A stretch of DNA of 64,000 nt from Arthrobacter pascens (GTDB lineage Bacteria > Actinomycetota > Actinomycetes > Actinomycetales > Micrococcaceae), in the NCBI RefSeq assembly GCF_030815585.1, contig NZ_JAUSWY010000001.1, positions 2,108,001 to 2,172,000 on the forward strand, written 5' to 3'. Positions within the stretch are counted from its first letter, which is position 1. Each line of letters opens with the position of its first letter. Below the pieces are notes generated by a model. It searched no databases. It worked only from the letters and a program-made list of their open reading frames with translations, and was not told where the DNA came from. Below, one piece after another: positions 7,236-26,020 of the stretch. The position numbers and the translations under genes were made by a program.

Positions 7236-8420
7236 TCATCGTGACAGGAGCAACGCTTCGCCTTGGCCACCTCCGCCGCACAGCGCTACGGCGGCCTTGC
7301 CGGTACCGCGGCGCTGGAGCTCATGGACGGCAGCCACCACCACACGTGCTCCGGAAGCGCCAATGGGATGGCCGAGGGCGATGGCTCCGCCGTTGACGTT
7401 GACTCGGTCCATACCGATCCCCAGCTGCGCGGCTGAGTGGACGGAGACTGAGGCAAACGCCTCATTGATCTCCACGAAGTCCAGATCGCCAACGCTCCAG
7501 CCGGCCGTCCCCAGTGCCTTGCCGATGGCATGAGCCGGTTTGTCGGGCAGCGTGGTGTCCTGACCCGCCGTCTGTCCATGGGCGTGGAGCACCGCCATAA
7601 TCTCCAGGCCGTGCGCCTCCGCATAGCCGCGGGTTGTCAGGACGACGGCGGCTGCACCGTCGTTCAGGGGCGAGGCATTGCCTGCGGTAACAGTGCCGGT
7701 TGGGGAGAACGCTGGCCTGAGCTTGGCCAGGGATTCTTCGTTGCTGTCCGCCCGCACACCCTCGTCAGTGTTTGCCAGCTGGGCTGCGCCGCGGCGCCGC
7801 GGCACCTTGATGGGGACAATCTCAGCATCGAAGATCCCCCCTGCCTGCGCCGCCGCTGCCCGCCGGTGGGAGTCGGCCGCAGCTTTGTCCTGGTGGGCGC
7901 GGGTAATTCCCAACGCCTCATTGGCATGGTCCGTGGCAAGGCCCATGGCCTGGTGATCAAAGGCATCGGTGAGGCCGTCGTGCGCTGCTGAGTCGATGAG
8001 GGCAGAATCGCCATAGAGGTGCCCGGCCCGCGAGCCCGGAAGCAGGTGCGGGGCGTGGCTCATTGATTCCTGCCCTCCCGCCACCACCACGTCAGCCTCC
8101 CCCAGCCGCAAGAGCCGGCTGGCGTCAATGATCGCGCTCAATCCGGACAGGCACACCTTATTCACTGTGACGGCGTGGGCGCCCAGCGGAATGCCCCCTG
8201 CCACTGCTGCCTGCCGCGCCGGGTTCTGCCCTGCCCCGGCCTGGAGCACGTGTCCCATGATGACGGCGCCGACCGCGGCGAGGTTGATGCCAGCACGGTC
8301 AACTGCCGACGCGATGGCAGCGCCGCCGAGCTCCACGGCGGTCAACGGCGCGAGCTGTCCCATCAGTTTGCCTTGAGGCGTGCGCGCTGCCCCGACGATC
8401 ACAATGTCAGTGTGGTGCAT
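7236..8420 (-). CDS. Acetyl-CoA C-acyltransferase (thiolase)
   Basis: 394-residue cytosolic thiolase that releases acetyl-CoA from a 3-oxoacyl-CoA (or condenses two acyl-CoAs). The nucleophilic Cys is in NKVCLSGL (about residue 90). The NEAFA motif, the GHPIGASGAR motif with the active-site His and the C-terminal catalytic Cys in ALCGGGGQGEA are all present, so the enzyme looks intact. AGGAGAAGAA precedes the ATG. It is the fifth gene of the leftward operon after transporter, CoA-transferase, acyl-CoA dehydrogenase and FadB-type enzyme, which together form a complete activation and beta-oxidation route. Chain-length preference cannot be assigned. Confidence 0.93.
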   Translation of the reverse strand: MHHTDIVIVGAARTPQGKLMGQLAPLTAVELGGAAIASAVDRAGINLAAVGAVIMGHVLQAGAGQNPARQAAVAGGIPLGAHAVTVNKVCLSGLSAIIDASRLLRLGEADVVVAGGQESMSHAPHLLPGSRAGHLYGDSALIDSAAHDGLTDAFDHQAMGLATDHANEALGITRAHQDKAAADSHRRAAAAQAGGIFDAEIVPIKVPRRRGAAQLANTDEGVRADSNEESLAKLRPAFSPTGTVTAGNASPLNDGAAAVVLTTRGYAEAHGLEIMAVLHAHGQTAGQDTTLPDKPAHAIGKALGTAGWSVGDLDFVEINEAFASVSVHSAAQLGIGMDRVNVNGGAIALGHPIGASGARVVVAAVHELQRRGTGKAAVALCGGGGQGEALLLSR

Positions 8421-10610: not shown

Positions 10611-10686
10611 AGGGGTTCCCTTCGCGTAGACAAAACAGGACAGCAGGACCTAAGCCGGGGAGGTCAGGCCTGCGGATTCGCGGCGG

Positions 10687-11850
10687 CTACGAAAAACTCT
10701 GGATGCCAGTGATCGCGCGGCCCATGATCAGGGTGTGGATCTCGTCGGTACCCTCATAGGTCCGCACGCTTTCAAGATTGTTGGCGTGCCGCAGCGGCGA
10801 GTATTCGAGGGTGATCCCGTTTCCGCCGAGGATGGTGCGCGCGGAGCGGCAGATCTCAATTGCCTGCCGGACGTTGTTGAGCTTCCCGAAAGAAATCTGC
10901 TCGGGGCGCAGCCGTCCGGAGTCCTTCAGGCGCCCGGTCTGGAGGGCCACGAGCGTTCCCTTTTGGATCTCCAGCACCATGTCCACCAGCTTCTGCTGGG
11001 TGAGCTGGAACGAGGCGAGCGGCTTGCCGAACTGGGTCCGCTGGTTCGCATAGGCCAAGACCGTTTGGTACGCATCACGGGCGGCGCCCATGGCGCCCCA
11101 CAAGATGCCATACCTTGCTTCATTCAGGCAGGAGAAGGGGCCCCGGAGGCCGGTCACTTCGGGGAGCACGGCAGTGCCAGGCAGCTGGACGTTCTCCATG
11201 GTGATGTCGCACTGGATGGAGGCGCGCATGGACAACTTCTCCGGGATCGGGGTGGCCACGAAGCCCTCGGTGTCCGTCGGGACGACGAAGCCGCGGATGC
11301 CGTCGTCGGTTGCTGCCCAGATGATGGCAACATCTGCGATGGAGGCCAGGCCGATCCAGCGCTTGGCGCCGTTCAGCACCCAGCCCTGCCCAACCCGTTC
11401 CGCTCGGGTGAGCATGTTGGCGGGATCGCTGCCGGCAGTGGGCTCGGTGAGGCCGAAGCAGCCGATGAGCTCACCTGCCGCCATGCCGGGGAGCCACTGG
11501 CGCTTGTGCTCCTCTGACCCGAACTTCGCGATCGCGCTCATGGCCAAGGACCCCTGCACGGAGACGAAGGTGCGGATGCCGGAATCGCCGGCTTCAAGTT
11601 CCATGGCGGCGATTCCGTATTCGACAGCGCTACGGCCGCCGCAGCCGTAGCCGGTCAGGTGCATGCCCAACAGGCCCAGGATTCCCATCTCCTTGACAAG
11701 GTCCTGAGGGAAGACCGCGTCCTCGTACCAGGCATTGATGTTGGGCCGAATGCGGTCGTCGACGAACTGGCGGACCTGGCTGCGCAGGTCGAGCTCCTGA
11801 TGGCTGAGCAGGGAGTCGATGTCAAGGTAGTCGGTGGCGAGGTCGATCAC
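10687..11850 (-). CDS. Acyl-CoA dehydrogenase, glutaryl-CoA dehydrogenase-like
   Basis: 387-residue flavoprotein of the acyl-CoA dehydrogenase family, nearest in pattern to glutaryl-CoA dehydrogenase. Features are FGLTEPTAGSDP (flavin/substrate binding), the R-T-QFGKP motif and the C-terminal RTYEGTDEIHTLIMGRAITG, whose Glu is the catalytic base. It overlaps the upstream CoA-transferase gene by four bases (ATGA, 11847-11850), a sign of translational coupling. A dicarboxylic acyl-CoA such as glutaryl-CoA is a reasonable substrate given the coupled CoA-transferase, but saturated monocarboxylic or ring-derived acyl-CoAs cannot be excluded. Confidence 0.88.
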   Translation of the reverse strand: MIDLATDYLDIDSLLSHQELDLRSQVRQFVDDRIRPNINAWYEDAVFPQDLVKEMGILGLLGMHLTGYGCGGRSAVEYGIAAMELEAGDSGIRTFVSVQGSLAMSAIAKFGSEEHKRQWLPGMAAGELIGCFGLTEPTAGSDPANMLTRAERVGQGWVLNGAKRWIGLASIADVAIIWAATDDGIRGFVVPTDTEGFVATPIPEKLSMRASIQCDITMENVQLPGTAVLPEVTGLRGPFSCLNEARYGILWGAMGAARDAYQTVLAYANQRTQFGKPLASFQLTQQKLVDMVLEIQKGTLVALQTGRLKDSGRLRPEQISFGKLNNVRQAIEICRSARTILGGNGITLEYSPLRHANNLESVRTYEGTDEIHTLIMGRAITGIQSFS

Positions 11851-13148: not shown

Positions 13149-14522
13149 TCAGTGACTGGATGCGCGGACCGCGTTGTTGAAGAGTGGCGTCCGGACGATC
13201 AGCATGATGGCGGCGGCTGCCAGCGGCAACACGGTTACCTGCAGCAGGCCGGCTCCCTGCCAGCCGACGCTTGGCACCAGCGCCGCGAACAGCAGGCCGG
13301 AAAAGGCGGCCGATCCGTAGTAGCACGTGACGAAAAGACCGGCGGCCCGCCCCACCTGGTGCGGACGGACTGCCCGCTGGATGGCACTGTTCATGTTGGG
13401 GAAGAAGACGCCGGTACCGAACACACCCATGAGGCCGGCGAAGACGCACTGCCAGGCGAACGACGCCTGGACCTGGTAGATCAGCACACCGAGGACCGCC
13501 ATCACCACCAGGGAAACGATCAGCAGGGTCCTCTGGTTGATCCGGTCCCCGATCCAGCCGCCGAGCAGGCCGGCCAGGCCTCCCAGACCCACGAAGCTCA
13601 GCGCCACTGCGGACTCTCCGGTGGAAATGCCCAGTTGAGTAGTCAGGAAGGTGGGGTACAGGCCCAGGAATCCGTACAGGGCGATGGAGCCGCAGCCGGC
13701 GGCCGCGGCAATCGCCAAGGAGTTACGGTTGTAGGCCTTTTCCGGCATGTAGTCGTAGGATCCTTCGACGCCGGTCAGGCTAATCGCCCGCTCGGTGAAT
13801 TTGCGGCTGACAGCGAACGCGACCACCACTGCGAGCAGCAGCCCGAGTACTCCGAAAATCATAAAGGGGGCCCTCCAGGTTCCGAACTGGCCGGCGAACA
13901 TGATGCCAAGGGCCGGCCCGAAGGTTGCACCCAGGCCAAATGCGAAGCCTAATATGCCCAGGGCGAGGCCCCGGCGGAGGTGGAAGAAGGCACCGACCGC
14001 GGCGAACAGCGCTGCGGCCTGCATCCCCTCACCCAGGCCCGAGATGATTCGATACACGGCCATGTCGGCCCACGAGGAGGCAAGTGGCGTGGCCAGTGTG
14101 CCCAGGGAGTAGATCACAATGCTGACTATCAGGACGGCTTTGCGCGAGAAGCGCTCCACCAGGAACCCTGCAGGGATGCCTGCTATGGCCATCCCCAGGG
14201 TGAAGATTGTGGCCAGCAGCCCGCCGGCCTGCAGGCTGAACCCATACTCAGTGCTGATAGTGCCCAGCAGGGGAAAGAAGACCTGCCTGTCCATCGCATT
14301 GAGCATAAACGTGATGGCCAATACCCCGAGCGACACGGCAGCAACGACCTTGGTGGGCATGCCCTCGGGGTTGTCCTTCACCCGTGATGGTGCCGGGCTG
14401 GACGGAATCGCATCCATGGAAATGGCGTCCATGGGCTCAGGGTAGGTGGGCACGGCAGGCCCGGCGGCAGATCCAGCTGTAGCCGGGGCTTGGCCTGCGC
14501 TGGAAGGGGTCGAGTGGGACAT
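13149..14522 (-). CDS. MFS transporter, probable organic-acid uptake
   Basis: 457 residues with twelve predicted membrane helices and the MFS loop-2 signature (GIPAGFLVERFSRKAVL). The first about 55 residues are a hydrophilic Ala/Pro/Ser-rich tail containing a repeated MDAI motif. The start at 14522 is supported by TAGGAGACAAAG. It is the first gene of the leftward operon and lies downstream of a LacI-operator promoter (14750-14783), giving a predicted untranslated leader of about 225 bases. A carboxylate or aromatic acid substrate is inferred only from the downstream CoA-transferase. Confidence 0.85.
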   Translation of the reverse strand: MSHSTPSSAGQAPATAGSAAGPAVPTYPEPMDAISMDAIPSSPAPSRVKDNPEGMPTKVVAAVSLGVLAITFMLNAMDRQVFFPLLGTISTEYGFSLQAGGLLATIFTLGMAIAGIPAGFLVERFSRKAVLIVSIVIYSLGTLATPLASSWADMAVYRIISGLGEGMQAAALFAAVGAFFHLRRGLALGILGFAFGLGATFGPALGIMFAGQFGTWRAPFMIFGVLGLLLAVVVAFAVSRKFTERAISLTGVEGSYDYMPEKAYNRNSLAIAAAAGCGSIALYGFLGLYPTFLTTQLGISTGESAVALSFVGLGGLAGLLGGWIGDRINQRTLLIVSLVVMAVLGVLIYQVQASFAWQCVFAGLMGVFGTGVFFPNMNSAIQRAVRPHQVGRAAGLFVTCYYGSAAFSGLLFAALVPSVGWQGAGLLQVTVLPLAAAAIMLIVRTPLFNNAVRASSH

Positions 14523-14749: not shown

Positions 14750-14783
14750 GTGCTAACGATAGCACGCACGGTCCGCGAGTCAA
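14750..14783 (-). promoter_or_regulatory. LacI-type operator overlapping promoter of the leftward operon
   Basis: The 16-bp operator GTGCTAACGATAGCAC occupies 14750-14765. On the minus strand TTGACT (14783-14778), a 16-base spacer and TATCGT (14761-14756, inside the operator) form a promoter reading toward the MFS gene. Occupancy would occlude the -10 element, implying repression. Confidence 0.75.
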
Positions 14784-14820: not shown

Positions 14821-14854
14821 TTGACTGCCAGCAGAGGAGTGCTATCGTTAGCAC
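14821..14854 (+). promoter_or_regulatory. LacI-type operator overlapping promoter of the regulator gene
   Basis: Mirror arrangement of the leftward promoter: TTGACT (14821-14826), a 16-base spacer and TATCGT (14843-14848) lying within operator GTGCTATCGTTAGCAC (14839-14854). It predicts negative autoregulation of the LacI gene. The two operators are 89 bases apart centre to centre, a distance at which looping is possible. Confidence 0.75.
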
Positions 14855-15009: not shown

Positions 15010-16041
15010 ATGGTCACGACCAAGGATATCGCTGTACATCTGCAGCTGTCGGTCTCCACAGTGGGCCGGGCGCTGGCCGATGACGCGCGTATCAGTGACC
15101 AGACCAAGGCACGGGTCCGCCAGGCAGCTTCCGAGCTGGGATACGTAGGCAATCACGCTGCCCGAATGATGCGCGGGGCTCCCAGCAACGTCGTAGGGCT
15201 GGTCATCCCTGACATTCGGAACAGTTTCTACTTCACCATTGCCCATGAGCTGTCCGCGATCATGGCCGGTGAGGACTATCAGTTGATGCTGGCCGAGACA
15301 TTCGATGACCGCCTCATTGAGAGGCGCCACCTTCGCGAGCTGTCGGCGAGCCACGCGGCAGGTGTTGTTATTGCCCCCACCCCCAATCCACACAGCGATT
15401 CGATCAATATGCTGAGCGGAATGCCGCACGTCCAGCTGCTGCGCAAGCATTCATCACTGGGTGCCCAGTGGTTCGGCCTGGACGACCGCCGGGCGCTCAA
15501 GGATGCCACCACGCACCTGCTGGATCTCGGCCACTCCCGGATCGCCTATATCGGAGCGCCTGCCGACCTGCCCACTGGCCGGGAGCGGCTCGAAGGCTAC
15601 AGCCAGGCCTTGCGCGAAAACAACGTCCCGCTACGCGCCCATCTGATCGAACTCGGCCCGCCGGCGTCTCCCGAGCACGCCCGGGAGGCCATGCGCCGGT
15701 TACTGAACCGATCCAGCCCGCCAACCGCCGTCGTCCTTGGCTCCGTCCTTCACACTGTGGGCGTGCTGGATGGATTACTGGAGATGGACGTCGACGTTCC
15801 TACGGAACTGTCCGTGGTGGGCTTCGGTGATCAAAGCGGTTTCTCCTGGTGGGGGCCTGGCCTGACTACCGTCAGCCTGCCCATCGGCGATGTGGCCACC
15901 TCCTGCGGCCTTTGGTTCATTCGCCGGCTCAACAATCCGCCCGCCGGGAATGACCCCTACGAGTCCGCGTCGGTGGGCTGGCTGGTGCCACGGGGCAGCA
16001 CTGCTGCACCTCCCGCGGCATCGCGCGAGCGCTCCGCCTGA
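15010..16041 (+). CDS. LacI-family transcriptional regulator of the catabolic block
   Basis: 343 residues from the ATG at 15010, chosen because ACAGGAGGAACG lies directly before it and the DNA-binding helix-turn-helix (VTTKDIAVHLQLSVSTVGRAL) then begins at residue 2, as in LacI proteins. A longer frame from 14905 only adds a nonconserved tail. Residues about 60-320 are the periplasmic-binding-like ligand domain (NVVGLVIPDIRNSFY, VVGFGDQSG). Five matching operators are found in this block (14750, 14839, 16094, 19528, 19648), two flanking its own promoter region. The effector is unknown. A LacI-type repressor is unusual for an aromatic or CoA-ester pathway. Confidence 0.9.
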   Translation: MVTTKDIAVHLQLSVSTVGRALADDARISDQTKARVRQAASELGYVGNHAARMMRGAPSNVVGLVIPDIRNSFYFTIAHELSAIMAGEDYQLMLAETFDDRLIERRHLRELSASHAAGVVIAPTPNPHSDSINMLSGMPHVQLLRKHSSLGAQWFGLDDRRALKDATTHLLDLGHSRIAYIGAPADLPTGRERLEGYSQALRENNVPLRAHLIELGPPASPEHAREAMRRLLNRSSPPTAVVLGSVLHTVGVLDGLLEMDVDVPTELSVVGFGDQSGFSWWGPGLTTVSLPIGDVATSCGLWFIRRLNNPPAGNDPYESASVGWLVPRGSTAAPPAASRERSA

Positions 16042-16090: not shown

Positions 16091-16112
16091 ACGGTGCTAA
16101 CGATAGCACCGT
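16091..16112 (+). promoter_or_regulatory. LacI-type operator before extradiol dioxygenase gene
   Basis: The 16-bp core GTGCTAACGATAGCAC (16094-16109) sits inside a longer palindrome whose outer arms ACGGTGCTA and TAGCACCGT match perfectly. It ends 25 bases before the dioxygenase start. No clear -35/-10 pair was found here, so it may act as a downstream block. Confidence 0.7.
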
Positions 16113-16136: not shown

Positions 16137-17138
16137 ATGCTGCCACCGGTCGATCTACGTCCGCCGTTCAACATCACCCGAACCAGCCACCTGCGCCTGA
16201 ATGTGGCTGACCTTGCCGCGAGCCGTGATTTCTACACCACGGTCCTCGGCCTGGTGGTGACCGAGGAGGACCACTCCACGGTCTACCTGCGTGGCCTCGC
16301 GGAGGCCTGTCACCACAGCCTTGTGTTGGAGAAGAGCACCGACGGCGGCACCGCCCGCCGGATAGGATTCCGCGTCTTCTTCGAAGAGGACCTGGACGAG
16401 GCCTACCGCTACTTTCGTGACCGGGGGCTCCCGGCCGAGTGGGTGGACATGCCACATCAGGGCCGCACCCTGCATGTCGCAGACCCTGTCGGGACGCCGC
16501 TGGAGCTGTGCGCAACCATGGAGACCCGGCCCCGGCTGCACATCAACTTTGAGCAGTACAAAGGCGCCCACGCCCAGCGGCTGGACCACTTCCAGTTGCT
16601 CACGCCCGACGTCTACGAGTTGTGCGCTTTCTACAGCGAACTGGGCTTCCGCAACTCCGAGTACCTTGAGTACGGCGACGAACTTGTGGGCGCCTTCATG
16701 TACCGCAAGGGCACTTGCCTTGACTTGGCAATGGTGCCCGGCGACGGTCCAAGCCTCCATCACTTCGCTTACACCGTCTCCGAGAGCCATGACATCTTCA
16801 CCGCCTGCGATTTCGCCGGCATCCTGGGCTACGGCGACCAGGTGGAACGTGGTCCAGGCCGGCATGGCCCCGGCGGCATGCTCTTCGCTTACCTCCGTGA
16901 TCCGGACGGTCACCGGGTTGAGGTCTTCAACAGCCACTACCAGACAATCGATCTTGAGACCGAGCCGGTGCGCTGGGACGCCGCATCGGTGAGCACCAAC
17001 GCGCGCTGGGGACTGCCCGCCCTGGAGCAGTGGTACTTCGAGGCCTCGCCCTTCGTTGGCGCACCGCTGAAGTCCCCGGCTGTCCGTCCTGCCCCCATGA
17101 CACTGGAGAAGTTCCTGGCCAGCCCCCAACTCCCCTAA
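16137..17138 (+). CDS. Extradiol ring-cleavage dioxygenase (VOC, HpaD/MndD-like)
   Basis: 333-residue two-domain type I extradiol dioxygenase. It is similar in pattern to homoprotocatechuate 2,3-dioxygenase, including the Mn-dependent MndD described from Arthrobacter. The metal triad is visible in the C-terminal domain: His in RLDHFQLLTPD, His in SLHHFAYT, and Glu in DPDGHRVEVF. The family signature ERGPGRHG is present. It would open a catechol-type ring between a hydroxylated and a neighbouring carbon. AGGAG precedes the ATG. It starts a rightward three-gene run with a CMD-family protein and a dehydrogenase. The exact substrate is not determinable; no ring hydroxylase or semialdehyde dehydrogenase accompanies it. 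Confidence 0.87.
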   Translation: MLPPVDLRPPFNITRTSHLRLNVADLAASRDFYTTVLGLVVTEEDHSTVYLRGLAEACHHSLVLEKSTDGGTARRIGFRVFFEEDLDEAYRYFRDRGLPAEWVDMPHQGRTLHVADPVGTPLELCATMETRPRLHINFEQYKGAHAQRLDHFQLLTPDVYELCAFYSELGFRNSEYLEYGDELVGAFMYRKGTCLDLAMVPGDGPSLHHFAYTVSESHDIFTACDFAGILGYGDQVERGPGRHGPGGMLFAYLRDPDGHRVEVFNSHYQTIDLETEPVRWDAASVSTNARWGLPALEQWYFEASPFVGAPLKSPAVRPAPMTLEKFLASPQLP

Positions 17139-17197: not shown

Positions 17198-17740
17198 ATG
17201 TCCCGAGTTCCCTCCCTGTCCCGCGATGACGCCGTCTCGGTCCACCAGCAGCCGCTGTGGGACCGCATCGAGGCGGAGCGCAAAATGCCCACCGCGAATA
17301 TCTTCCGCTCTCTGGCGAACGCCCCGGTCCTGCTCGACGCGTTCCTCTCCTATGCCAACGCCATGCGTGACAGCTCCCTGCTGAGCCCCAAGCTGCGGGA
17401 GCTGGCCATCCTGTCCGTGGGCCATGCCACCGACTCTGAATATGAGATCGCGCACCACCAGTCACATGGCCGCAAAGCCGGACTCACGGATGAGCAGCTT
17501 GCTGCAGTGGCCGACGGCACCAGCACTGAGCTGTTCAATGACGCCGAACGCGCCGTGATAGCGCTGGCACGCGAATCCACCGTCAACGTGAATGTGTCCG
17601 ATGAAAGCTGGGCGGCCGCAGCCAAGCACCTCGATGACCAGCAGATGGTGGAGCTCACGCTGACCATCGCCTGGTACAACTCAGGCGTACGGGTGATGGG
17701 CCTGCTCGGCATCGAACTCGAGGACAGCTACCGCAAGTAG
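17198..17740 (+). CDS. Carboxymuconolactone decarboxylase (CMD/AhpD-like) family protein
   Basis: 180-residue all-helical protein of the CMD family. The core SPKLRELAILSVGHATDSEYE followed by AHHQSHGRKAGL is recognisable, but the AhpD-type Cys-x-x-Cys redox pair is absent, so a thiol peroxidase role is unlikely. Acid/base chemistry on a lactone or keto acid, as for gamma-carboxymuconolactone decarboxylase relatives, is possible. GGAG lies nine bases before the ATG. It is encoded 59 bases after the dioxygenase and most likely acts on that enzyme's product line. Confidence 0.75.
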   Translation: MSRVPSLSRDDAVSVHQQPLWDRIEAERKMPTANIFRSLANAPVLLDAFLSYANAMRDSSLLSPKLRELAILSVGHATDSEYEIAHHQSHGRKAGLTDEQLAAVADGTSTELFNDAERAVIALARESTVNVNVSDESWAAAAKHLDDQQMVELTLTIAWYNSGVRVMGLLGIELEDSYRK

Positions 17741-17796: not shown

Positions 17797-18906
17797 ATGG
17801 CGACGATGCGCGCAGCCAGACTGCACAAGATCGGCGATCCGATGTCGATCGACATCATCGAAGTACCCAAGCCCCGACCCACCGACGTACTGGTCAGGGT
17901 CAAGGCCGTCGGCATTGTGCCGAACATGGCCAACGTGATCAACAACTGGCCCACCTGGTTTCCGCACCAGCCCATCCCCAATTTTCCGGCGATCTTCGGG
18001 CTTGATCCCACCGGAGTGGTGGAAGAGGTCGGAGAGTCCGTCATCAACGTCAAACCCGGAGACCGGGTATACGTCAGCCCACTCCGCTCCTGCGGCAGCT
18101 GCTACGCCTGTTCGGGGGGAACCCCCAGCCGCTGCCGCTACTACACCCTCAACGGCTATTTCAGCACGTCCCGCGATGGCCAGCGGATCTTTGATCTCTA
18201 CCCTTACGGCGGGTTCAGTGAGTTCATGACAGCGCCACAGCAGGCCCTGGTCAAGATCCCCGACAACCTTCCGTTTGAGCTGGCAGCCCGTTTTGGCTAC
18301 ATTGGCACCGCTTACGGTGCGCTCCGCCTGGCAGATGCCGGACCGGGCACTGTTGGCCTCATTGACGGCATTACCGGCACCCTGGGCGTGGCTGCGACTG
18401 TGCTTTGTTTGAGCATGGGCGTTGCGAAGATCCTGGGCACGGGGCGCAACGAGGAACTGCTCCAGCGCGTGAAGGCATTGGCGCCGAACAGGATAGAGGT
18501 CATGAACCTCGGCGAGCAGTCCTCCGGAGAGTGGGCCAAGGAGCAGACACGCGGCGACGGCGCCCACTTCGTGATCAGTGCGCTCGGGGCCCGGGCGGAC
18601 GCCGCCACCATGGTGGATTCCATGCGGGGGGTCCGGCGCGGCGGTCGCGTGGTGAACGTCGGCGGAGTTGCGGATGAGGTCCCGGTGGACATGAAGTGGC
18701 TGATGGACGAGCAGGTACAGATTATCGGCTCGAACTGGTTCACAGCGGCCCAGGGCCAAGAGATGGCAGACATGATCGAGACTGGCACCTTGGACCTCAC
18801 CTACCTTGAGACCGAAGCGTTCCCGCTGTCGGACGTCAACACTGCGATCTCAGGGCGGCTGAAGGACCCGCGTGGTGGCTTCAGCAACTATGTAGTCATT
18901 CCCTAG
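17797..18906 (+). CDS. Alcohol dehydrogenase-like MDR protein lacking the catalytic zinc site
   Basis: 369-residue medium-chain dehydrogenase/reductase. The structural-zinc lobe is intact (four Cys in CGSCYACSGGTPSRC). The first catalytic-zinc Cys is missing, with VKAVGIVPNMAN in place of the usual G-x-C-G-x-D, and the following His-Glu is replaced by LDPTG. The nucleotide-binding region (LIDGITGTLGVAATV) is a modified Rossmann glycine motif. It therefore probably performs a zinc-independent reaction such as enoyl reduction. AGAAGGAG precedes the ATG. It is the last gene of the dioxygenase run and is followed by a terminator hairpin. Confidence 0.8.
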   Translation: MATMRAARLHKIGDPMSIDIIEVPKPRPTDVLVRVKAVGIVPNMANVINNWPTWFPHQPIPNFPAIFGLDPTGVVEEVGESVINVKPGDRVYVSPLRSCGSCYACSGGTPSRCRYYTLNGYFSTSRDGQRIFDLYPYGGFSEFMTAPQQALVKIPDNLPFELAARFGYIGTAYGALRLADAGPGTVGLIDGITGTLGVAATVLCLSMGVAKILGTGRNEELLQRVKALAPNRIEVMNLGEQSSGEWAKEQTRGDGAHFVISALGARADAATMVDSMRGVRRGGRVVNVGGVADEVPVDMKWLMDEQVQIIGSNWFTAAQGQEMADMIETGTLDLTYLETEAFPLSDVNTAISGRLKDPRGGFSNYVVIP

Positions 18907-18975: not shown

Positions 18976-19506
18976 TCAGGCGCCGGCGCCGGTGAGCACA
19001 AACGCCACCGTCGCCGGCGCCTGCGTTTTATTCCGCCAGGCATGGCGGGCGGCGAGCTGCACAATGGTGTCACCCTGCGTCAGGAGCACCTGCGCGCCGT
19101 CGTCGAGCTCCAGCCACAGCTCCCCTTCCAGCACCACTCCGTAGTCGACGCTGCGCGTGCGGTGCATGCCGTCCGGCTCGAACACCTCGGCGAGATCGGG
19201 TGCGTAGACTGCCATCTCCTGCCCTGCGGCGCCCGGATCGAATCCCGGGCTCATCACCACGGATTCCGGTGCGTAACTCACGATCACAAAGCTTGCCCCG
19301 CCGGGCCCCGGCACCACCGGTCCATGGTTGTCGGTGGGCTCCGCCTCGGGCGGCGAGCCGGACGGCACCCCCGGCGTAAACCAGACCCGGACCTGAGCCT
19401 GTCCCGGCATACTTTCAAAGGCATGGCTGTTGGGCACCGGTCCGTCGGAGACGAAAACCGACTTCCCAGATCCGTCCATGCCGGTCACTACTCTGCGTAC
19501 AGTCAC
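18976..19506 (-). CDS. Cupin-domain protein
   Basis: 176 residues from a GTG at 19506, chosen because AGAGGAAGAGGA lies seven bases before it and the protein then begins MTVRRVVTG, a usual N-terminus for this cupin group. A longer frame from a TTG at 19533 would start inside the operator. The cupin core is in the last about 70 residues: MHRTRSVDYGVVLEGELWLEL and GDTIVQLAARHAWRN. One His of the first metal-binding motif and one of the second are visible. Proteins of this kind accompany aromatic and keto-acid pathways as isomerases, decarboxylases or dioxygenases; no specific reaction can be assigned. It is transcribed divergently from the FAH operon and shares its operator region. Confidence 0.8.
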   Translation of the reverse strand: MTVRRVVTGMDGSGKSVFVSDGPVPNSHAFESMPGQAQVRVWFTPGVPSGSPPEAEPTDNHGPVVPGPGGASFVIVSYAPESVVMSPGFDPGAAGQEMAVYAPDLAEVFEPDGMHRTRSVDYGVVLEGELWLELDDGAQVLLTQGDTIVQLAARHAWRNKTQAPATVAFVLTGAGA

Positions 19507-19527
19507 AAAAAAATCCTCTTCCTCTTT

Positions 19528-19570
19528 GTGCAATCGTTAGCACTATCTCTTGGTTGGGGTGAGGTGTCAA
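19528..19570 (-). promoter_or_regulatory. Cupin-gene promoter with LacI-type operator
   Basis: On the minus strand a consensus TTGACA (19570-19565), 17-base spacer and GATAGT (19547-19542) precede operator GTGCAATCGTTAGCAC (plus-strand 19528-19543; 15 of 16 bases match the 14839 site). Transcription should start inside the operator. Confidence 0.65.
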
Positions 19571-19629: not shown

Positions 19630-19663
19630 TGGCATTTCGATGCATCTGTGCTATCGTTAGCAT
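19630..19663 (+). promoter_or_regulatory. FAH-operon promoter with LacI-type operator
   Basis: TGGCAT (19630-19635), 16-base spacer and TATCGT (19652-19657). The TATCGT lies inside operator GTGCTATCGTTAGCAT (19648-19663, 15 of 16 bases match). The arrangement is the same as at 14821-14854. The predicted transcription start coincides with the ATG at 19665, implying a leaderless message. Confidence 0.65.
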
Positions 19664-19664
19664 T

Positions 19665-20732
19665 ATGCTTGAAGAAGACACCATCGACGACGCCGTTGCT
19701 CCCGCGGGAATCGTTTTAGCCCAGGCAGGCCTCTGGGACGAAACGGCGGCCATCTGGCTGGTCCATAGCGGCCGGGCGCTTCCCCTGCAAGCGTGGGCCG
19801 GGCGCTGGCCCTGCGCCAGGTTCGCCTCAGTCACTGAGCTGATCGCTCAATGGGGCAGCATTCGCGCGGAGCTTCGACGGCTCGTCGAGCTCCCGCAGAC
19901 GTCGGCGACGATTAGCGAAGAGGGCGTTCCGGTGGCTTCGCTGCGGCTGGAGGCTCCCTTCCAGCCCACGCAGGTGTTCTGCACCATCGGCAACTACCGC
20001 CGGCAGGTCATCGAGGCCGCAGTGGATGCCGGCGACCCCGCTGAGGCCGGTCGGTTGGCGGCCGCCACCACCCAGGCGCTCAACCATCGACGCCGGAACG
20101 GCAGCCCCTACGTCTGCCTGACCAGCAACGACAGGGTCGCCCCCGCCGTCGGCGAGCTGGCCCTGGAGGCGGACGTGGACACCTTGGACTGGGAGGTGGA
20201 GATCGGTGCCGTCATCGGAGGTTCCGGCTCCCGCTTGACGCTGCCGGAGGCTGAGGCGGTGATCGCCGGCTACTGCGTGGTCAACGACCTGACCATCCGC
20301 TCCCGCATCGTCCGGCCCGACCTGCCTGCGCTGGGCTCGGACTGGCTGCAGTGCAAGGGCATGCGGGGATCGCTGCCGCTCGGACCATGGTTCGTGCCCG
20401 CCTGGCAGGTCCCCGACCCTTCCGCCTTGCGGCTTCAGCTTTCGCTCAACGGCTTGCCGATGCAGGACGACACGGCCGACGACATGGTGTTCACCATTCC
20501 CGAACAGCTGTCCTACCTGTCCCAACACACCCGGCTTCGCCCCGGAGACCTGCTCTGCACCGGCTCCCCCGCCGGGTTCGGTATCCACCACGGCCGGTTT
20601 CTGCGTCCCGGAGACACCGTGAGGGCTTCGATAACCGGGCTCGGCGAGCAGAACACCCGCTTCGTTGGTCCGAGATTTTTTCCCAGCCAATCCCACTCAA
20701 ACCTGGCCGTTCCAGGCCTGACCACTACCTAA
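19665..20732 (+). CDS. Fumarylacetoacetate hydrolase family protein (first copy)
   Basis: 355 residues if translation begins at the ATG at 19665. The frame extends upstream to 19575, but the predicted promoter and operator lie between the two starts, so the longer form would not be on the transcript. The FAH fold covers about residues 95-340: metal ligands E-x-E in LDWEVEIGAVIGG, Asp in VVNDLTIRSRI, and LLCTGSPAGFGI. The N-terminal about 90 residues are a separate domain. FAH proteins hydrolyse, hydrate or decarboxylate 2-oxo acids from ring cleavage. A second, distinct FAH gene lies in the same operon. It is the first gene of the second rightward operon. Confidence 0.85.
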   Translation: MLEEDTIDDAVAPAGIVLAQAGLWDETAAIWLVHSGRALPLQAWAGRWPCARFASVTELIAQWGSIRAELRRLVELPQTSATISEEGVPVASLRLEAPFQPTQVFCTIGNYRRQVIEAAVDAGDPAEAGRLAAATTQALNHRRRNGSPYVCLTSNDRVAPAVGELALEADVDTLDWEVEIGAVIGGSGSRLTLPEAEAVIAGYCVVNDLTIRSRIVRPDLPALGSDWLQCKGMRGSLPLGPWFVPAWQVPDPSALRLQLSLNGLPMQDDTADDMVFTIPEQLSYLSQHTRLRPGDLLCTGSPAGFGIHHGRFLRPGDTVRASITGLGEQNTRFVGPRFFPSQSHSNLAVPGLTTT

Positions 20733-20743
20733 GGAGCAGACTC

Positions 20744-21733
20744 ATGACGCTGCAGCAAACAGTCCTGCTGACAGACCGGGCCTGGCCCGACGACAGCATC
20801 GAACGCGGCATCATCGAAGACGCCGGCTTCCGTTTTGTCGCCGGCCCGGCCGACCCCGCACCAGTCGAGGCTATTAACGCACTGGTCGCAGAGCACCAGC
20901 CTGCCGCCATCCTCACCTGCTGGGCAACAGTATCCGCCGCAGCGATCGATTCCTCAGCCCCGTTGCGGGTTGTTGCCCGGATGGGCGTTGGCCTGGACAA
21001 CATCGCCGTGCCCGCGGCCACGGATCACGGCGTGCAGGTGACCAACGTTCCGGACTACTGCGTCGAGGAGGTCTCCGACCACGCCGTCGGCCTGGCCCTG
21101 GCCTGGACGCGCGGCCTGGTCGCCACCGACCGCGAGGTCCGCGCCGGACGATGGAACCCCGCCGGGGCCCGGCTTCGCCGCCTGTCCAACCTGACCTGCG
21201 GCGTTATCGGCTACGGCCGCATCGGCAGAGCTACTGCAGCCAAGCTCAAGGCGCTCGGAGCCCGCGTGGTGATCAGCGATCCGCACCCACCGGCCGACAC
21301 CGGCGGCATTGAGGCGATGACACTGGACGGCCTCCTGGCAGCCAGCGACATCGTGGTCCTCCACGCTCCCCTGGTCCCGCAGACACATCACCTGATCGGG
21401 GCCCGGGAACTGGCCCTGCTTCCGCAGGATGCCTTCCTGGTCAATGTCAGCCGCGGCGGGCTGGTCGATACCGCAGCCCTAATGGCCGCCCTGCAATCAG
21501 GCAAGCTCGGCGGAGCAGGACTGGATGTACTGGAGGAAGAGCCCACGGTTCCTGCCGGGCTACTGGCCCACCCTGGCGTGATTGTCACACCGCACATCGC
21601 TTTCGCCTCCGACGCTTCGGTGATCGACCTGCGGCGCAGCGCCGCCGAAGAAGTGGTCCGCGTCCTGCGCGGAGAACCGGCAAACTATCCCTGTAACACC
21701 CCGTCCGCCCTCGCCACAGGAGTGTCATCGTGA
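20744..21733 (+). CDS. D-isomer-specific 2-hydroxyacid dehydrogenase
   Basis: 329 residues from the ATG at 20744, supported by TAAGGAGCAGACTC. The NAD(P)-binding motif GVIGYGRIGRATAAKLKALG and the catalytic Arg (VNVSRGGLVD), Glu (LDVLEEEP) and His (VTPHIAF) are all present. It interconverts a 2-oxo acid and a D-2-hydroxy acid. It follows the FAH gene by 11 bases and its stop codon overlaps the enolase-paralog start (GTGA, 21730-21733). The order hydroxyacid dehydrogenase, enolase-like enzyme, kinase suggests a 2-hydroxy acid that is phosphorylated and dehydrated, analogous to glycerate to PEP, but the true substrate is unknown. Confidence 0.9.
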   Translation: MTLQQTVLLTDRAWPDDSIERGIIEDAGFRFVAGPADPAPVEAINALVAEHQPAAILTCWATVSAAAIDSSAPLRVVARMGVGLDNIAVPAATDHGVQVTNVPDYCVEEVSDHAVGLALAWTRGLVATDREVRAGRWNPAGARLRRLSNLTCGVIGYGRIGRATAAKLKALGARVVISDPHPPADTGGIEAMTLDGLLAASDIVVLHAPLVPQTHHLIGARELALLPQDAFLVNVSRGGLVDTAALMAALQSGKLGGAGLDVLEEEPTVPAGLLAHPGVIVTPHIAFASDASVIDLRRSAAEEVVRVLRGEPANYPCNTPSALATGVSS

Positions 21734-23034
21734 GCATCATCCGCACCGTCCACGGCCGCCAGATCTTCGATTCCCGCGGCCGCCCCACCGTCGAGGTGGA
21801 CATCATCCTCGAAAACGGTGCCAGCGCCCGGGCGTCGGTTCCCTCCGGCGCCTCCACCGGTACCCACGAGGCCCACGAACTGCGCGATGGAGACGCATCG
21901 GTTTTCGACGGCCTCGGCGTCACCTCCGCCGTCGAGCATGTGAACGGCGAGATCGCTGCGGCGCTCCACGGCCACGATGTTGACGACCAGCGGGCCATCG
22001 ACGAAAGGCTGCGGAACCTGGACGGAACCTCCACACTGTCGCGGCTCGGCGCCAACGCAGTGCTGGGAACCTCGCTGGCAGTCTGCCGCGCCTCCGCCGT
22101 GGCCAGCGGACTGCCGCTGTATCGCAGGATCGCCCAGCTCGCCGGCGTCGATGAGCCCGTGCTGCCGATGCCGATGGTCAACATCCTTTCCGGCGGCCTC
22201 CACGCGGGCCGCGGCATGGACGTCCAGGATTTCCTCGCAGTACCGGTTGCGGCAACGTCCGCGCTCGAGGCCATCCAGCTCACTTCCCGTGTCCGTGCAG
22301 CTGCCGCTGGCCTCTGTGCCGAACGGGGGCTGCCGACGCTGTTGGCCGACGAGGGCGGGCTGAGCCCGGGCTGCCGCACGGGCGAGGAAGCCCTCGAACT
22401 CATCACCGAGTCCATTCTGGCGGCCGGCCTGCAGCCCGGCACAGATATAGCCATTGCCATCGACGTCGCCGCGGCATCCCTGTACGACAGTGAGGCAGGT
22501 GACTACCACCTGCGCCGGCAGGAACGGCACCTCAGCACCGCCGAAATGATTGACATGGTGTCCTCATGGGTGGACCGCTTCGCTATCGTCTCGATCGAAG
22601 ATCCGCTCGACGAGGACGACTGGGCCGGCTGGCAGACCTTGACCAAGCGCCTCGGTCACCGGATCAGGCTGATCGGCGACGACCTGTTCACCACCAACAG
22701 CGAACGGCTCGCCCGGGGCATCTCCCAGGGAGTTGCCAACGGCGTCCTGGTCAAGGTGAACCAGAACGGCACGCTGACCGGCACCCTTGACGTGGTGGCC
22801 GAGGCGCGCGCCGCGGGTTACGCCCCGGTGGTATCAGCCCGCTCCGGGGAGACCGAGGATGACTTCCTGGCCGATCTGGCTGTGGGCACCGCAGCCGGGC
22901 AGATCAAGATCGGGTCCGTCCGGAATTCCGAGCGGCTCGCCAAGTACAACCAGCTGGTGCGCATCGCCGAGGACCCCACCCTGGGCTTCAGGAACCTGCC
23001 AGCGCTGGCCTTGACCGCGGACGGTGGCCGGTGA
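21730..23034 (+). CDS. Divergent enolase paralog in a catabolic operon
   Basis: 434 residues, full enolase length and fold, GTG start overlapping the previous stop. The metal ligands D245, E290 and D317 are kept, as are E208 (ADEGG), Lys342 (LVKVNQ), Arg371, Lys393 (GQIKIGS) and His158. Two active-site positions differ from canonical enolases. The Glu of the Q-E-F motif is Asp (VQDFLA, residue 167), and the His of S-H-R-S-G-E-T is Ala (SARSGETED, residue 370). The latter His helps bind and position the substrate and water in glycolytic enolase. The metal-site motif D-CAAS-EF is also altered (DVAAASLY). A housekeeping enolase would not normally sit between a hydroxyacid dehydrogenase and a kinase. 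This is probably a specialised dehydratase acting on a phosphorylated 2- or 3-hydroxy acid; glycolytic activity is doubtful. Confidence 0.85.
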   Translation: MSIIRTVHGRQIFDSRGRPTVEVDIILENGASARASVPSGASTGTHEAHELRDGDASVFDGLGVTSAVEHVNGEIAAALHGHDVDDQRAIDERLRNLDGTSTLSRLGANAVLGTSLAVCRASAVASGLPLYRRIAQLAGVDEPVLPMPMVNILSGGLHAGRGMDVQDFLAVPVAATSALEAIQLTSRVRAAAAGLCAERGLPTLLADEGGLSPGCRTGEEALELITESILAAGLQPGTDIAIAIDVAAASLYDSEAGDYHLRRQERHLSTAEMIDMVSSWVDRFAIVSIEDPLDEDDWAGWQTLTKRLGHRIRLIGDDLFTTNSERLARGISQGVANGVLVKVNQNGTLTGTLDVVAEARAAGYAPVVSARSGETEDDFLADLAVGTAAGQIKIGSVRNSERLAKYNQLVRIAEDPTLGFRNLPALALTADGGR

Positions 23035-24077
23035 AAGTCGCCGGACCCCAGGAGCGCGTGCAGGAGTTCCTGCTCCGCCACGGGCTGATGCAGCCTGGGG
23101 AAGAGGCGATACCGAGTCCCTTGACCGGCGGCGTGAGCTCGGACCTCTGGCAAGTGTCGCTGCCCGGCCGGATGCTATGCGTCAAGGGAGCATTGGCCCG
23201 GCTGAAGGTGGCTCACGAGTGGCTCGCTCCCCTCTCCCGCAACCGCGTTGAATACGACTGGCTGCAGTTTGCCGGAACCGTCGCTCCCACTCATGTCCCG
23301 CAGGTGCTCGCCTACGACGGGCAGGCCGGTCTGTTCGCTATGCAATTCCTCCCGCCCGAGGACTACCCAGTCTGGAAGGACCAGCTCCTCACCGGGCAGG
23401 TCGACCCGGCTGCCGCTCACGCAGTGGGCGACCTGGTCGGCAGGCTGCATTCAGCAAGCGCCAACGACACCTCGGCCGCAAGCACGTTTGCCACCGACAG
23501 CAACTTCGACGCCCTGCGCATCGAGCCGTACTTCCGGGTCACAGCCCGTGCTAACCCGGACCTGGCCGACCGGATCGAGGGCCTGGCCGCGAGGACCACC
23601 GGCACTCATCTGGCGGTGGTGCACGGCGACGTCAGTCCCAAAAACATCCTTCTCGGTCCGCACGGGCCCGTGCTGCTCGACGCCGAGTGCGCTTGGTTCG
23701 GTGACCCTGCGTTCGACGTCGCGTTTTGTCTGAATCACCTGCTGCTCAAGGCGATCATCCTGCCCGACTACACCGCGCAGCTGCACAGCTCCGCACGAAT
23801 GCTACTGGACGGCTATGCCCGCCATATTGACTGGGAACCGGGCCCGGACCTGATGGCGCGCACCGCGGCCCTGCTGCCGCTGCTCGCCCTGGCCCGGGTC
23901 GACGGAGCCTCCCCGGTGGAGTATCTGACACCTGAGCAACGCGGCCAGGTCCGCAACGCCGCGAGGGATCTGCTGGCTCGGCCGGCACTGACCCTCGACA
24001 CGGTCCTTAAGGAATGGATGCTGATGGCGGGCACTCCAGCGGCCGGCACCACTCACATGAAAGAGCAGACCAGGTGA
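23031..24077 (+). CDS. APH/choline-kinase-fold small-molecule kinase
   Basis: 348 residues, GTG start overlapping the enolase-paralog stop (GTGA). The phosphotransferase signature is complete: Lys52 (LCVKGAL), H198-G-D200-x4-N205 (VHGDVSPKNIL) and the metal-binding Asp217 (VLLDAE). The overall pattern resembles methylthioribose, choline and fructosamine-type kinases rather than antibiotic kinases. Tight coupling with the enolase paralog upstream and the FAH protein downstream (another GTGA overlap) argues that it phosphorylates a pathway intermediate. An antibiotic-resistance role is very unlikely in this context. Confidence 0.82.
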   Translation: MKVAGPQERVQEFLLRHGLMQPGEEAIPSPLTGGVSSDLWQVSLPGRMLCVKGALARLKVAHEWLAPLSRNRVEYDWLQFAGTVAPTHVPQVLAYDGQAGLFAMQFLPPEDYPVWKDQLLTGQVDPAAAHAVGDLVGRLHSASANDTSAASTFATDSNFDALRIEPYFRVTARANPDLADRIEGLAARTTGTHLAVVHGDVSPKNILLGPHGPVLLDAECAWFGDPAFDVAFCLNHLLLKAIILPDYTAQLHSSARMLLDGYARHIDWEPGPDLMARTAALLPLLALARVDGASPVEYLTPEQRGQVRNAARDLLARPALTLDTVLKEWMLMAGTPAAGTTHMKEQTR

Positions 24078-25081: not shown

Positions 25082-26020
25082 ATGAAAGTAGCCATTCTGG
25101 CCCAGACCGGAACCATACCCACCTACGCAGATTTCCCTGACCCCCAGCCCCGCAGCGGCCACGTCGTCGTCGACGTCGCAGCGGCCGGGGTCCATCACCT
25201 CGACCTGGCCAAGGCATCGGGGGCGTTCGGGGAGCCCGGCACCATGCCGTACGTGATTGGGGCCGACGGTGTGGGCAAGACCGCCACTGGACGTCGCGTC
25301 TTTTTCACGTCACCGGTTTCGCCTCACGGTTCCTGGGCCGAGCGTACACTCGTCGCCGAGGAGGACCTGCTGGACCTCGCAGACGAGGTCGACGACGTTA
25401 CCGCGGCCGCGCTCGGCAACACTGGACTTGCCGCCTGGCTCGCCCTCACGTGGCGGGCCAAGCTGCAGCCCGGCCAGAACGTGCTGGTGCTGGGCGCGAC
25501 CGGTGCACTCGGATCGATCGCCGTCCAACTCGCCAAGTCCCTCGGAGCGGCAACGGTGGTCGCTGCCGACCGGGACCCCGGCCGCCTGGCCCTCTCCAGG
25601 GAGCGCGGCGCCGATGCCACCGTGAGGATCAGCCCCGACACCGACCTTGTAGCCGCCTTCCGCAACACGGTCGGTGAGCGCGGCTTCGACGTCATTATTG
25701 ACCCGGTTTGGGGAGAACCCGCCCTTGCCGCCATGCACGTAGCTGCCCGAGGCGCCCGTCATATCCAGATCGGCCAGACCGCCGGGTCAACCATCGAACT
25801 GCCTGCCGGCCTCGTCCGCGCAGCCCGCCTGGAGCTCCTCGGGTTCGCCCATATGGACCCGCCGGCACAGGTCCGCCGCGACGCCTACCTGCAGCTGACG
25901 GGGCTCGCAGCGACCGGAGCGTTGGCCGTCGATACGATGGCACTCCCGCTCGCCGACTGCCGGCGGGCTTGGGACCTGCAGCAGCAGGGCGCCCCCCGCA
26001 AGCTCGTCCTAACGCCCTAG
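25082..26020 (+). CDS. Zinc-free MDR oxidoreductase (quinone-oxidoreductase-like)
   Basis: 312 residues of the quinone oxidoreductase/enoyl reductase branch of the MDR superfamily. There are no structural-zinc cysteines, and the NADPH motif is VLVLGATGALGSIAVQLAKSLGA. CTAGGAGAAAACC precedes the ATG. It is the last intact gene of the LacI-linked block, 69 bases after the second FAH gene. It probably reduces a conjugated C=C bond in an unsaturated keto acid or ester; the actual substrate is unknown. Confidence 0.85.
   Translation: MKVAILAQTGTIPTYADFPDPQPRSGHVVVDVAAAGVHHLDLAKASGAFGEPGTMPYVIGADGVGKTATGRRVFFTSPVSPHGSWAERTLVAEEDLLDLADEVDDVTAAALGNTGLAAWLALTWRAKLQPGQNVLVLGATGALGSIAVQLAKSLGAATVVAADRDPGRLALSRERGADATVRISPDTDLVAAFRNTVGERGFDVIIDPVWGEPALAAMHVAARGARHIQIGQTAGSTIELPAGLVRAARLELLGFAHMDPPAQVRRDAYLQLTGLAATGALAVDTMALPLADCRRAWDLQQQGAPRKLVLTP

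What the first reader, a model, noticed from the sequence alone, without database searches (positions are those of the whole stretch)
21730..23034. Enolase paralog with two altered active-site residues inside a catabolic operon
The protein is full-length enolase by pattern and keeps its metal ligands and the Lys/Glu acid-base pair. The Glu of Q-E-F is Asp (D167), the His of S-H-R-S-G-E-T is Ala (A370), and the DCAASEF metal-site motif is changed. It is sandwiched between a 2-hydroxyacid dehydrogenase and a kinase under LacI control. This points to a specialised phospho-hydroxyacid dehydratase, not glycolysis, and possibly a kinase-plus-enolase strategy in catabolism that I do not know as described.
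Basis: partly seen in the sequence, partly recalled or inferred. Interest (0 to 1): 0.85.

Follow-up and report, generated by a model that had tools for sequence, protein, structure and literature searches.

The report
Re-tooled enolase with partner kinase
A soil bacterium carries, besides its normal sugar-burning enolase, a second enolase changed at the same two active-site places as its relatives in many bacterial groups, nearly always beside one type of kinase, which hints at an undescribed way of using ATP to remove water from unusual hydroxy-acids.

Summary
ORF 21730-23034 is a full-length enolase paralogue that keeps the metal ligands and the Lys342/Glu208 pair but has E167D and H370A. 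The genome has a separate housekeeping enolase (50% identical). D167 and A370 are in 120 of the 120 best homologues. Of 80 loci fetched, 65 are D/A, 15 E/H, none mixed. The D/A enolases, from ten phyla, form one side of a branch (SH-aLRT 99) against 40 canonical ones. An APH-family kinase lies within 500 bp, same strand, in 61 of the 65 D/A loci, in either gene order, and in 0 of 65 canonical control loci (many with short flanks). In 19 of 33 members of the window's subclade a D-2-hydroxyacid dehydrogenase is next to it; in four loci it is fused to the kinase. A palindromic operator occurs five times in the genome, all in this cluster. Best reading: dehydrogenase makes a D-2-hydroxyacid, kinase phosphorylates its 2-OH, and the re-tooled enolase dehydrates this C3-substituted 2-phosphoglycerate analogue. 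Reactions and substrate are inferred, not shown. Ten searches of open-access papers listed nothing describing the module. NCBI's model names it phosphopyruvate hydratase, probably wrongly.

The parts
21730..23034 (+). Enolase paralogue with E167D and H370A (the finding)
23031..24077 (+). APH-family kinase, MTR-kinase-like fold; partner of the paralogue
   Evidence: Pfam APH; HGD....N motif invariant in 25 aligned kinases; fold match to MTR kinases; adjacent in 61 of 65 fetched D/A loci
20744..21733 (+). D-isomer-specific 2-hydroxyacid dehydrogenase; start ATG 20744 inferred
   Evidence: fused to the kinase in L057, L059, L060, L061
24074..25012 (+). Fumarylacetoacetate-hydrolase-family protein 2 (GTG 24074 inferred, 4-nt overlap with kinase)
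19665..20732 (+). Fumarylacetoacetate-hydrolase-family protein 1 (start 19665 inferred, just downstream of an operator)
25082..26020 (+). Quinone-oxidoreductase-type dehydrogenase, last gene of the unit as read
15010..16041 (+). LacI-family regulator (start 15010 inferred; the ORF opens at 14905)
16137..17138 (+). Extradiol dioxygenase, homologue of homoprotocatechuate 2,3-dioxygenase
   Evidence: TIGR02295 301 bits, cut-off 321; PDB 1f1r E 1.2e-64
17198..17740 (+). Carboxymuconolactone-decarboxylase-family protein
17797..18906 (+). Zinc alcohol dehydrogenase family protein
18976..19533 (-). Cupin-like protein, divergent gene (name taken from annotated relatives at the corresponding place; no Pfam match here)
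   Evidence: annotated cupin in L113, L115, L116; no Pfam match at 1e-8
13149..14522 (-). MFS-type transporter (name read from the sequence, not from a family scan; no NCBIfam match at 1e-30)
   Evidence: an MFS transporter is annotated in the related plasmid locus L113
11847..13115 (-). CaiB-type CoA-transferase, best model succinate-glutarate CoA-transferase (385 bits, cut-off 750)
10687..11850 (-). Acyl-CoA dehydrogenase (best model FadE 254 bits; glutaryl-CoA dehydrogenase model 187 bits; both below cut-off)
8493..10610 (-). FadB/FadJ-type hydratase/dehydrogenase (below cut-offs)
7236..8420 (-). Acetyl-CoA acyltransferase (passes TIGR01930)
14751..14764 (.). Operator TGCTAACGATAGCA
14840..14853 (.). 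Operator
16095..16108 (.). Operator, upstream of the dioxygenase
19529..19542 (.). Operator, one mismatch
19649..19662 (.). Operator, upstream of FAH1-2HADH-enolase-kinase-FAH2

Best explanation
A kinase-activated dehydration module. The D-2-hydroxyacid dehydrogenase reduces a 3-hydroxy-2-oxo acid R-CHOH-CO-COOH to the D-2,3-dihydroxy acid. The kinase phosphorylates its 2-OH. The D167/A370 enolase removes the C2 proton (Lys342) and the C3 hydroxyl (Glu208) to give R-CH=C(OPO3)-COOH, a substituted phosphoenolpyruvate. E167D and H370A open the pocket around C3 so that R can be larger than H. In the window this serves a LacI-regulated pathway, probably for a ring compound (extradiol dioxygenase, two FAH-family proteins, CoA genes resembling glutarate use); in other lineages the kinase-enolase pair sits with transporters or sugar-acid genes. 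Shown by sequence: the two swaps in every D/A member, retained catalytic residues, the near-constant kinase neighbour, dehydrogenase-kinase fusions, shared operators, a separate housekeeping enolase. Inferred: every reaction, R, and the order dehydrogenase, kinase, enolase.
For: D/A in 120 of 120 listed homologues; of 80 fetched loci 65 D/A, 15 E/H, none mixed. D/A and canonical rows on opposite sides of one branch, SH-aLRT 99, D/A rows from ten phyla. Kinase within 500 bp on the same strand in 61 of 65 D/A loci, downstream in 23 and upstream in 38; 0 of 65 canonical control loci. L044 has it 4.4 kb away; the genomes of L071, L095 and L099 have it elsewhere in the assembly. Reciprocal: 4 of 396 actinobacterial genomes hold the kinase at E<=1e-25 and 3 of those 4 have a D/A enolase beside it. 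Dehydrogenase-kinase fusion in 4 loci; dehydrogenase within 1.2 kb in 19 of 33 window-subclade members. Six positions separate the classes (at least 85% each): N154S, E167D, M169L, G206A, H370A, T394I; five of the six lie within two residues of a catalytic residue. In Chloroflexus enolase Glu165, which by order and spacing corresponds to residue 167, contacts 2-PGA (PMC4450660 passage). 30 of 30 carrier genomes tested, of 65, hold at least two enolase-domain matches. The genome has its own glycerate kinase family member. Operator: 5 sites in 4.73 Mb, all here; exact degenerate motif in 10 of 138 loci, all with the module.
Against: No biochemistry. The paralogue passes the curated enolase cut-off, so 2PG activity is not excluded. 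The dehydrogenase is next to only 1 of 33 enolases outside the window's subclade and is missing within 1.2 kb in 14 of 33 inside it (some contigs are short). The clustering of changes at the active site is only moderately significant once conservation is allowed for (P = 0.022). Some contexts (Paenibacillus galactonate dehydratase plus FAH, Spirochaete GntP permease) could equally deliver plain glycerate. Among the neighbour families I scanned, none is an obvious user of a substituted enol phosphate. One kinase homologue (L149, the weakest hit) has no enolase within 1.5 kb. Most control loci have short flanks.
Confidence: 0.6

Rival explanations
1. The module is simply glycerate to PEP: hydroxypyruvate reductase, glycerate 2-kinase and an isoenzyme of ordinary enolase acting on 2-phosphoglycerate, co-regulated with a pathway that yields hydroxypyruvate or glycerate.
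For: The order of reactions equals the lower arm of the serine cycle (recalled). The dehydrogenase is nearest to phosphoglycerate dehydrogenases and glyoxylate/hydroxypyruvate reductases. FAH with galactonate dehydratase, or a GntP permease, in other loci could supply glycerate. TIGR01060 cut-off is passed.
Against: Residues that are E and H in all 65 canonical copies checked are replaced in all 65 D/A loci; 30 of 30 carriers tested have another enolase-domain match; this genome has a glycerate kinase of the known family.
Confidence: 0.22
2. The leaving group differs: the substrate is X-CH2-CH(OPO3)-COOH with X other than hydroxyl (aryloxy, sulfite, thiol, amine), and the product is PEP itself plus XH.
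For: By recall the altered residues border the leaving group at C3; the 2-hydroxyacid dehydrogenase would make 3-X-lactate from 3-X-pyruvate; PEP needs no further special enzyme. The dehydrogenase-kinase fusion fits this as well.
Against: Glu208, the acid for hydroxide loss, is kept in 66 of 66; among the neighbours scanned no gene that would make or use a common X recurs across lineages.
Confidence: 0.1
3. The enolase acts on the other hand of the molecule, 2-phospho-L-glycerate, made from L-glycerate by the kinase.
For: Would explain why an ordinary enolase does not serve; a 3-carbon substrate would fit sugar-acid contexts.
Against: The dehydrogenase belongs to the D-specific family and is fused to the kinase in 4 loci; Lys342 and Asn344, Gln345 beside it are unchanged.
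Confidence: 0.05
4. A catalytically idle or moonlighting enolase copy.
For: Two active-site residues are replaced.
Against: The eleven other catalytic and ligand positions tallied are invariant in 66 of 66, and the class is kept in ten phyla with a steady partner.
Confidence: 0.03

Closest known systems
Housekeeping enolase (phosphopyruvate hydratase, TIGR01060)
   Same: Fold, length, three metal ligands, Lys/Glu pair, Arg-Ser, Ser39 loop
   Different: E167D, H370A and four more class-separating positions; kinase partner; rare (in a sample of 396 actinobacterial genomes one match at E<=1e-145, and two diverged D/A copies found through the kinase)
Serine-cycle segment hydroxypyruvate reductase - glycerate 2-kinase - enolase (pathway recalled; one search gave a listing only)
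   Same: Same three reaction types in the same order, if the module is read rightly
   Different: APH-family kinase; dedicated enolase with altered active site; other serine-cycle genes not noticed beside it, though not searched for
5-Methylthioribose kinase (MTRK)
   Same: Closest fold of the kinase model (TM by query 0.68-0.82 for MTRK chains)
   Different: 54 bits against an MTRK cut-off of 275; 14-16% identity in the fold match
Carboxyphosphonoenolpyruvate synthase, the enolase homologue of phosphinothricin biosynthesis (recalled)
   Same: A precedent for an enolase relative with a specialised substrate
   Different: Biosynthetic, phosphonate substrate; its residues were not compared here (one search listed one review, not read)
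LvaA-type phosphorylation-elimination in levulinate catabolism (recalled)
   Same: APH-family kinase activates a hydroxyl in catabolism
   Different: There the phosphate itself leaves from a CoA ester and no enolase is involved (recalled)

Membership tests
Canonical enolase (EC 4.2.1.11) | Enolase N and C domains over the full length, TIGR01060 cut-off | tested here: met
   507 bits versus 300; Pfam
Canonical enolase (EC 4.2.1.11) | Metal ligands Asp, Glu, Asp and catalytic Lys and Glu | tested here: met
   D245, E290, D317, K342, E208 in 66 of 66
Canonical enolase (EC 4.2.1.11) | Glu at 167 and His at 370 | tested here: not met
   D and A in 66 of 66; E and H in 40 of 40 canonical rows and 65 of 65 controls
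Canonical enolase (EC 4.2.1.11) | Groups with housekeeping enolases in a tree | tested here: not met
   Other side of a branch, SH-aLRT 99, quick unrooted tree
Canonical enolase (EC 4.2.1.11) | 2-phosphoglycerate to PEP activity | not testable with these tools
   Needs purified protein
5-methylthioribose kinase | TIGR01767 cut-off 275 bits | tested here: not met
   53.6 bits
5-methylthioribose kinase | APH/MTRK fold with HGD....N catalytic motif | tested here: met
Serine-cycle segment | Glycerate 2-kinase of the known GckA/MOFRL family | tested here: not met
   The kinase matches APH (and TCAD9 weakly) in Pfam, nothing else at 1e-3
Serine-cycle segment | Hydroxypyruvate as entry substrate | not testable with these tools
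   Needs assay
LacI-regulated catabolic cluster | LacI gene plus palindromic operators confined to the cluster | tested here: met
   5 sites in the genome with up to one mismatch, all in this locus; binding itself not shown

The most novel reading that the evidence does not exclude
Bacteria of at least ten phyla hold a second enolase class that is not glycolytic. With a dedicated kinase it forms a general 'phosphorylate, then dehydrate' route for substituted 2,3-dihydroxy acids, an ATP-driven alternative to the metal or iron-sulphur sugar-acid dehydratases, yielding substituted phosphoenolpyruvates with high phosphoryl potential. Many database 'phosphopyruvate hydratases' may belong to it.
Probability: 0.45. 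Interest if true: 0.85.

Novelty: new variant of a known kind. Interest (0 to 1): 0.72.

Why it matters
Enolase is a textbook example of an invariant enzyme with one job. A class with the same two active-site swaps in ten phyla and a near-constant kinase neighbour would show that it has been re-used for other substrates, give a natural experiment on what Glu168 and His373 (yeast numbering, recalled) do, and correct annotations that now place these proteins in glycolysis. It may also open a route to substituted phosphoenolpyruvates.

Tried and rejected
Literature: ten paper searches. Their listings (titles, starts of abstracts) showed nothing that describes the module; no whole paper was read. 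Passages of PMC4450660 and PMC12965863 were seen. The library is open-access PMC only, so absence from print is not shown.

Substrate from context: one or a few representatives of neighbouring families were scanned, not every neighbour. They point to ring cleavage (VOC-family proteins, FAH, an FAD monooxygenase), sugar acids (galactonate-dehydratase family, SDR, FAH), or transport (GntP, SSF, TctC), and no single substrate fits them all. Kojic acid, alkylresorcinols, aryl-glycerates, tartrate and erythronate were considered from recall and are supported by no call.

Kinase as an MTR kinase: rejected on score. Recent insertion judged by composition: 4-kb bins over 8-28 kb are 63-68% GC against 61-64% in the others, uninformative. 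The Azospirillum plasmid enolase turned out to be E/H and is not counted. The answers for the predicted structures of kinase and enolase held no coordinates, so no pocket analysis was made; the enolase model was not sent to a fold search.

Loci were sorted into D/A and E/H by those residues, so 'D/A in 65' is a count of states without mixtures, not an independent test. Controls have unequal flanks: 15 up to 10 kb, 30 about 1.5 kb, 20 about 0.5 kb. The tree is the quick method with several long branches and no root, so which class is older is open. The enolase-kinase distance correlation (Spearman 0.62, 0 of 1000 permutations as high, 63 loci) may reflect shared descent. Exact degenerate operators were absent from the other 128 of 138 loci; near matches with up to two mismatches occur among others in L044 and L052.
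Full report
Observation. The ORF at 21730-23034 is a full-length enolase (TIGR01060 507 bits; Enolase_N and Enolase_C). The genome, 4.73 Mb in one contig, holds one other enolase-domain match, at 3116911-3117753 on the minus strand. From the ORFs around it it has mazG-like and ftsB-like neighbours (names recalled). The two enolases are 50% identical over 415 residues. In the paralogue Glu is Asp at 167 and His is Ala at 370; the metal ligands D245, E290, D317, the pair K342/E208, and H158, R371, S372, K393, S39 are kept. The named nearest relatives of the paralogue are Arthrobacter and Paenarthrobacter, and the housekeeping copy groups with copies from the same family, so the host is probably of that kind.

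The swaps define a class. In the 120 listed homologues, the best of 7,998 scored, D167 and A370 are present in 120 of 120. A scan of genome contigs kept 80 loci: 65 enolases are D/A, 15 are E/H, none is mixed. A tree of 66 D/A enolases (window included) and 40 canonical ones, 21 of them from genomes that also carry a D/A copy (the window's own included), puts all D/A rows on one side of a branch with SH-aLRT 99. The D/A rows come from Actinomycetota, Pseudomonadota, Bacillota, Bacteroidota, Rhodothermota, Acidobacteriota, Chloroflexota, Planctomycetota, Spirochaetota and Verrucomicrobiota. The tree is a quick search with some long branches and is unrooted. Of 65 carrier genomes, 30 were examined, and 30 of 30 have at least two matches to the enolase domain; in one (G703) the strongest is a broken one. 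Of these, 20 second copies were read and are E/H. Six positions separate the classes at 85% or more in each: N154S (62 of 66), E167D (66), M169L (64), G206A (64), H370A (66), T394I (58). Five of the six lie within two residues of a catalytic residue; given that 43 of 120 columns conserved in both classes are that close, P = 0.022. In a Chloroflexus enolase structure 2-PGA is contacted by Glu165, Glu206, Lys338, Arg367 and Ser368 (PMC4450660, passages seen); by order and spacing these are window residues 167, 208, 342, 371 and 372. So residue 167 should touch the substrate and 370 adjoins the phosphate-binding Arg-Ser. That yeast Glu168 and His373 surround the C3 hydroxyl is recalled.

The kinase partner. 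The gene downstream, overlapping by 4 nt, is an APH-family kinase with an invariant HGD....N motif in 25 aligned rows. Its model (mean pLDDT 83) is nearest to 5-methylthioribose kinases, though it fails the MTRK model by far. With a profile built from these loci, the kinase is on the same strand within 500 bp of the D/A enolase in 61 of the 65 fetched loci, and in the window: downstream in 23 of the 61 and upstream in 38. In L044 it is 4.4 kb away; in L071, L095 and L099 it is not in the locus, but each of those assemblies has it elsewhere (L071 begins only 168 bp before its enolase). In L054 the kinase frame is broken. In 65 canonical enolase loci it was found 0 times; 20 of these had only about 0.5 kb of flank and 30 about 1.5 kb. 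From the other side, 4 of 396 actinobacterial genomes hold the kinase at E<=1e-25, and 3 of the 4 have a D/A enolase directly beside it (the window's own, and for the other two); the fourth is the weakest hit. Two gene orders with one partnership argue for function, not mere shared descent.

The dehydrogenase and hydrolases. In the window's subclade (N346/G351; 33 members with the window, a starred clade) a D-2-hydroxyacid dehydrogenase lies within 1.2 kb on the same strand in 19, and an FAH-family gene within 5 kb on either strand in 20; in the 33 others the numbers are 1 and 2. In L057, L059, L060 and L061 dehydrogenase and kinase are one ORF. A fusion of this kind usually links consecutive steps, so the dehydrogenase product is probably the kinase substrate; that is an inference.

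The regulon. The palindrome TGCTAACGATAGCA occurs in the window at 14751, 14840, 16095, 19649 and, with one mismatch, 19529 (with up to two mismatches 9 matches on both strands, 0.13 expected by shuffling). In the whole genome these are the only five sites with up to one mismatch. They stand between the divergent MFS-type and LacI genes, before the dioxygenase, and at the cupin-like gene and FAH1. The last precedes the unit FAH1-dehydrogenase-enolase-kinase-FAH2-oxidoreductase. The degenerate motif is found exactly in 10 of 138 loci: L033-L038, Sphingomonas L082 and plasmid loci L113, L115 and L116. So the enolase probably belongs to one regulon with an extradiol dioxygenase related to homoprotocatechuate 2,3-dioxygenase, two FAH-family proteins, and a CoA-transferase, acyl-CoA dehydrogenase, FadB and thiolase set; the glutarate-enzyme models among their matches are below curated cut-offs, while the thiolase passes TIGR01930. 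LacI binding is not shown.

Distribution. Among 295 genomes of the window's family, only the window's genome has a second match at E<=1e-100. Among 396 actinobacterial genomes it alone has a match at E<=1e-145; two more carry diverged D/A enolases found through the kinase. Five plasmid loci, from two Rhodococcus, Gordonia, Methylobacterium and Sphingobium, hold D/A enolases; four have the kinase beside it, while the Gordonia one has a split enolase frame at the start of its record and no kinase in the stretch read. The module is thus rare and patchy, and horizontal movement is likely.

Other contexts, from representatives only. Bacteroidota: sodium:solute symporter and asparaginase before, xylose-isomerase-like protein after. 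Spirochaete L096: GntP permease, kinase, enolase. Paenibacillaceae: a protein passing the galactonate-dehydratase model plus FAH and a sulfatase (L069); SDR, FAH and an MR/MLE enzyme (L070). Unnamed actinobacterial L153: MR/MLE enzyme, kinase, enolase, SDR. Chloroflexi L065: 2-hydroxyacid dehydrogenase, DhnA-type aldolase, FGGY kinase. In Acidobacteria the neighbours scanned (ParA/NifH-like ATPase, sulfatase, LuxR-type regulator) suggest no pathway. These suit hydroxy-acid catabolism in part but name no single substrate.

Mechanism. Retained Lys342, Glu208, metal ligands and phosphate-binding residues imply the same first step, proton removal from C2 of a 2-phospho acid. The two swaps shorten one side chain and remove another near C3. 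The simplest reading is a bulkier group at C3. With the dehydrogenase-kinase fusion this gives: 3-hydroxy-2-oxo acid, D-2,3-dihydroxy acid, 2-phospho acid, substituted PEP. It is the serine-cycle arm from hydroxypyruvate to PEP (recalled), rebuilt with another kinase and a re-tooled enolase. The main rival is that the substrate is glycerate after all; the swaps, the second enolase and the separate glycerate kinase speak against it without excluding it.

Verdict. The chemistry is unproven. It is a new variant of a known kind: an enolase by descent that departs from canonical enolase at two active-site positions otherwise constant in the canonical copies examined.

Noticed in passing
L145 (genome G700 of the Streptomyces locus L044), frame 2-760 minus: A further enolase variant (GGGAHADRRVDVQDF) near a copy of the kinase; that genome has four enolase-domain matches.
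   Followed up: no
L096, L098, L100, L108: A starred subgroup of D/A enolases from Spirochaetota and Verrucomicrobiota with a GGGAHA-type instead of SGGLHA-type loop.
   Followed up: partly
L054, about 9981-11043: Kinase gene in two overlapping frames next to a D/A enolase, with a gamma-glutamyltranspeptidase further downstream.
   Followed up: no
L117 (Gordonia plasmid p174), about 183-1488 minus: D/A enolase in two overlapping frames, possibly broken, next to a 2-hydroxyacid dehydrogenase.
   Followed up: no
window 1268-3568 +: Sulfate-permease domain fused to a carbonic-anhydrase domain.
   Followed up: no
window 4505-6109 +: GH68 levansucrase/invertase family protein.
   Followed up: no
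window 26622-27656 +: AAA ATPase with AAA_lid_6 (CbbX/SpoVK-like, name recalled) directly after the cluster.
   Followed up: no
G692:C1:30268-31065 (genome of L036): Very diverged enolase-domain match (165 bits) in an actinobacterial carrier.
   Followed up: no
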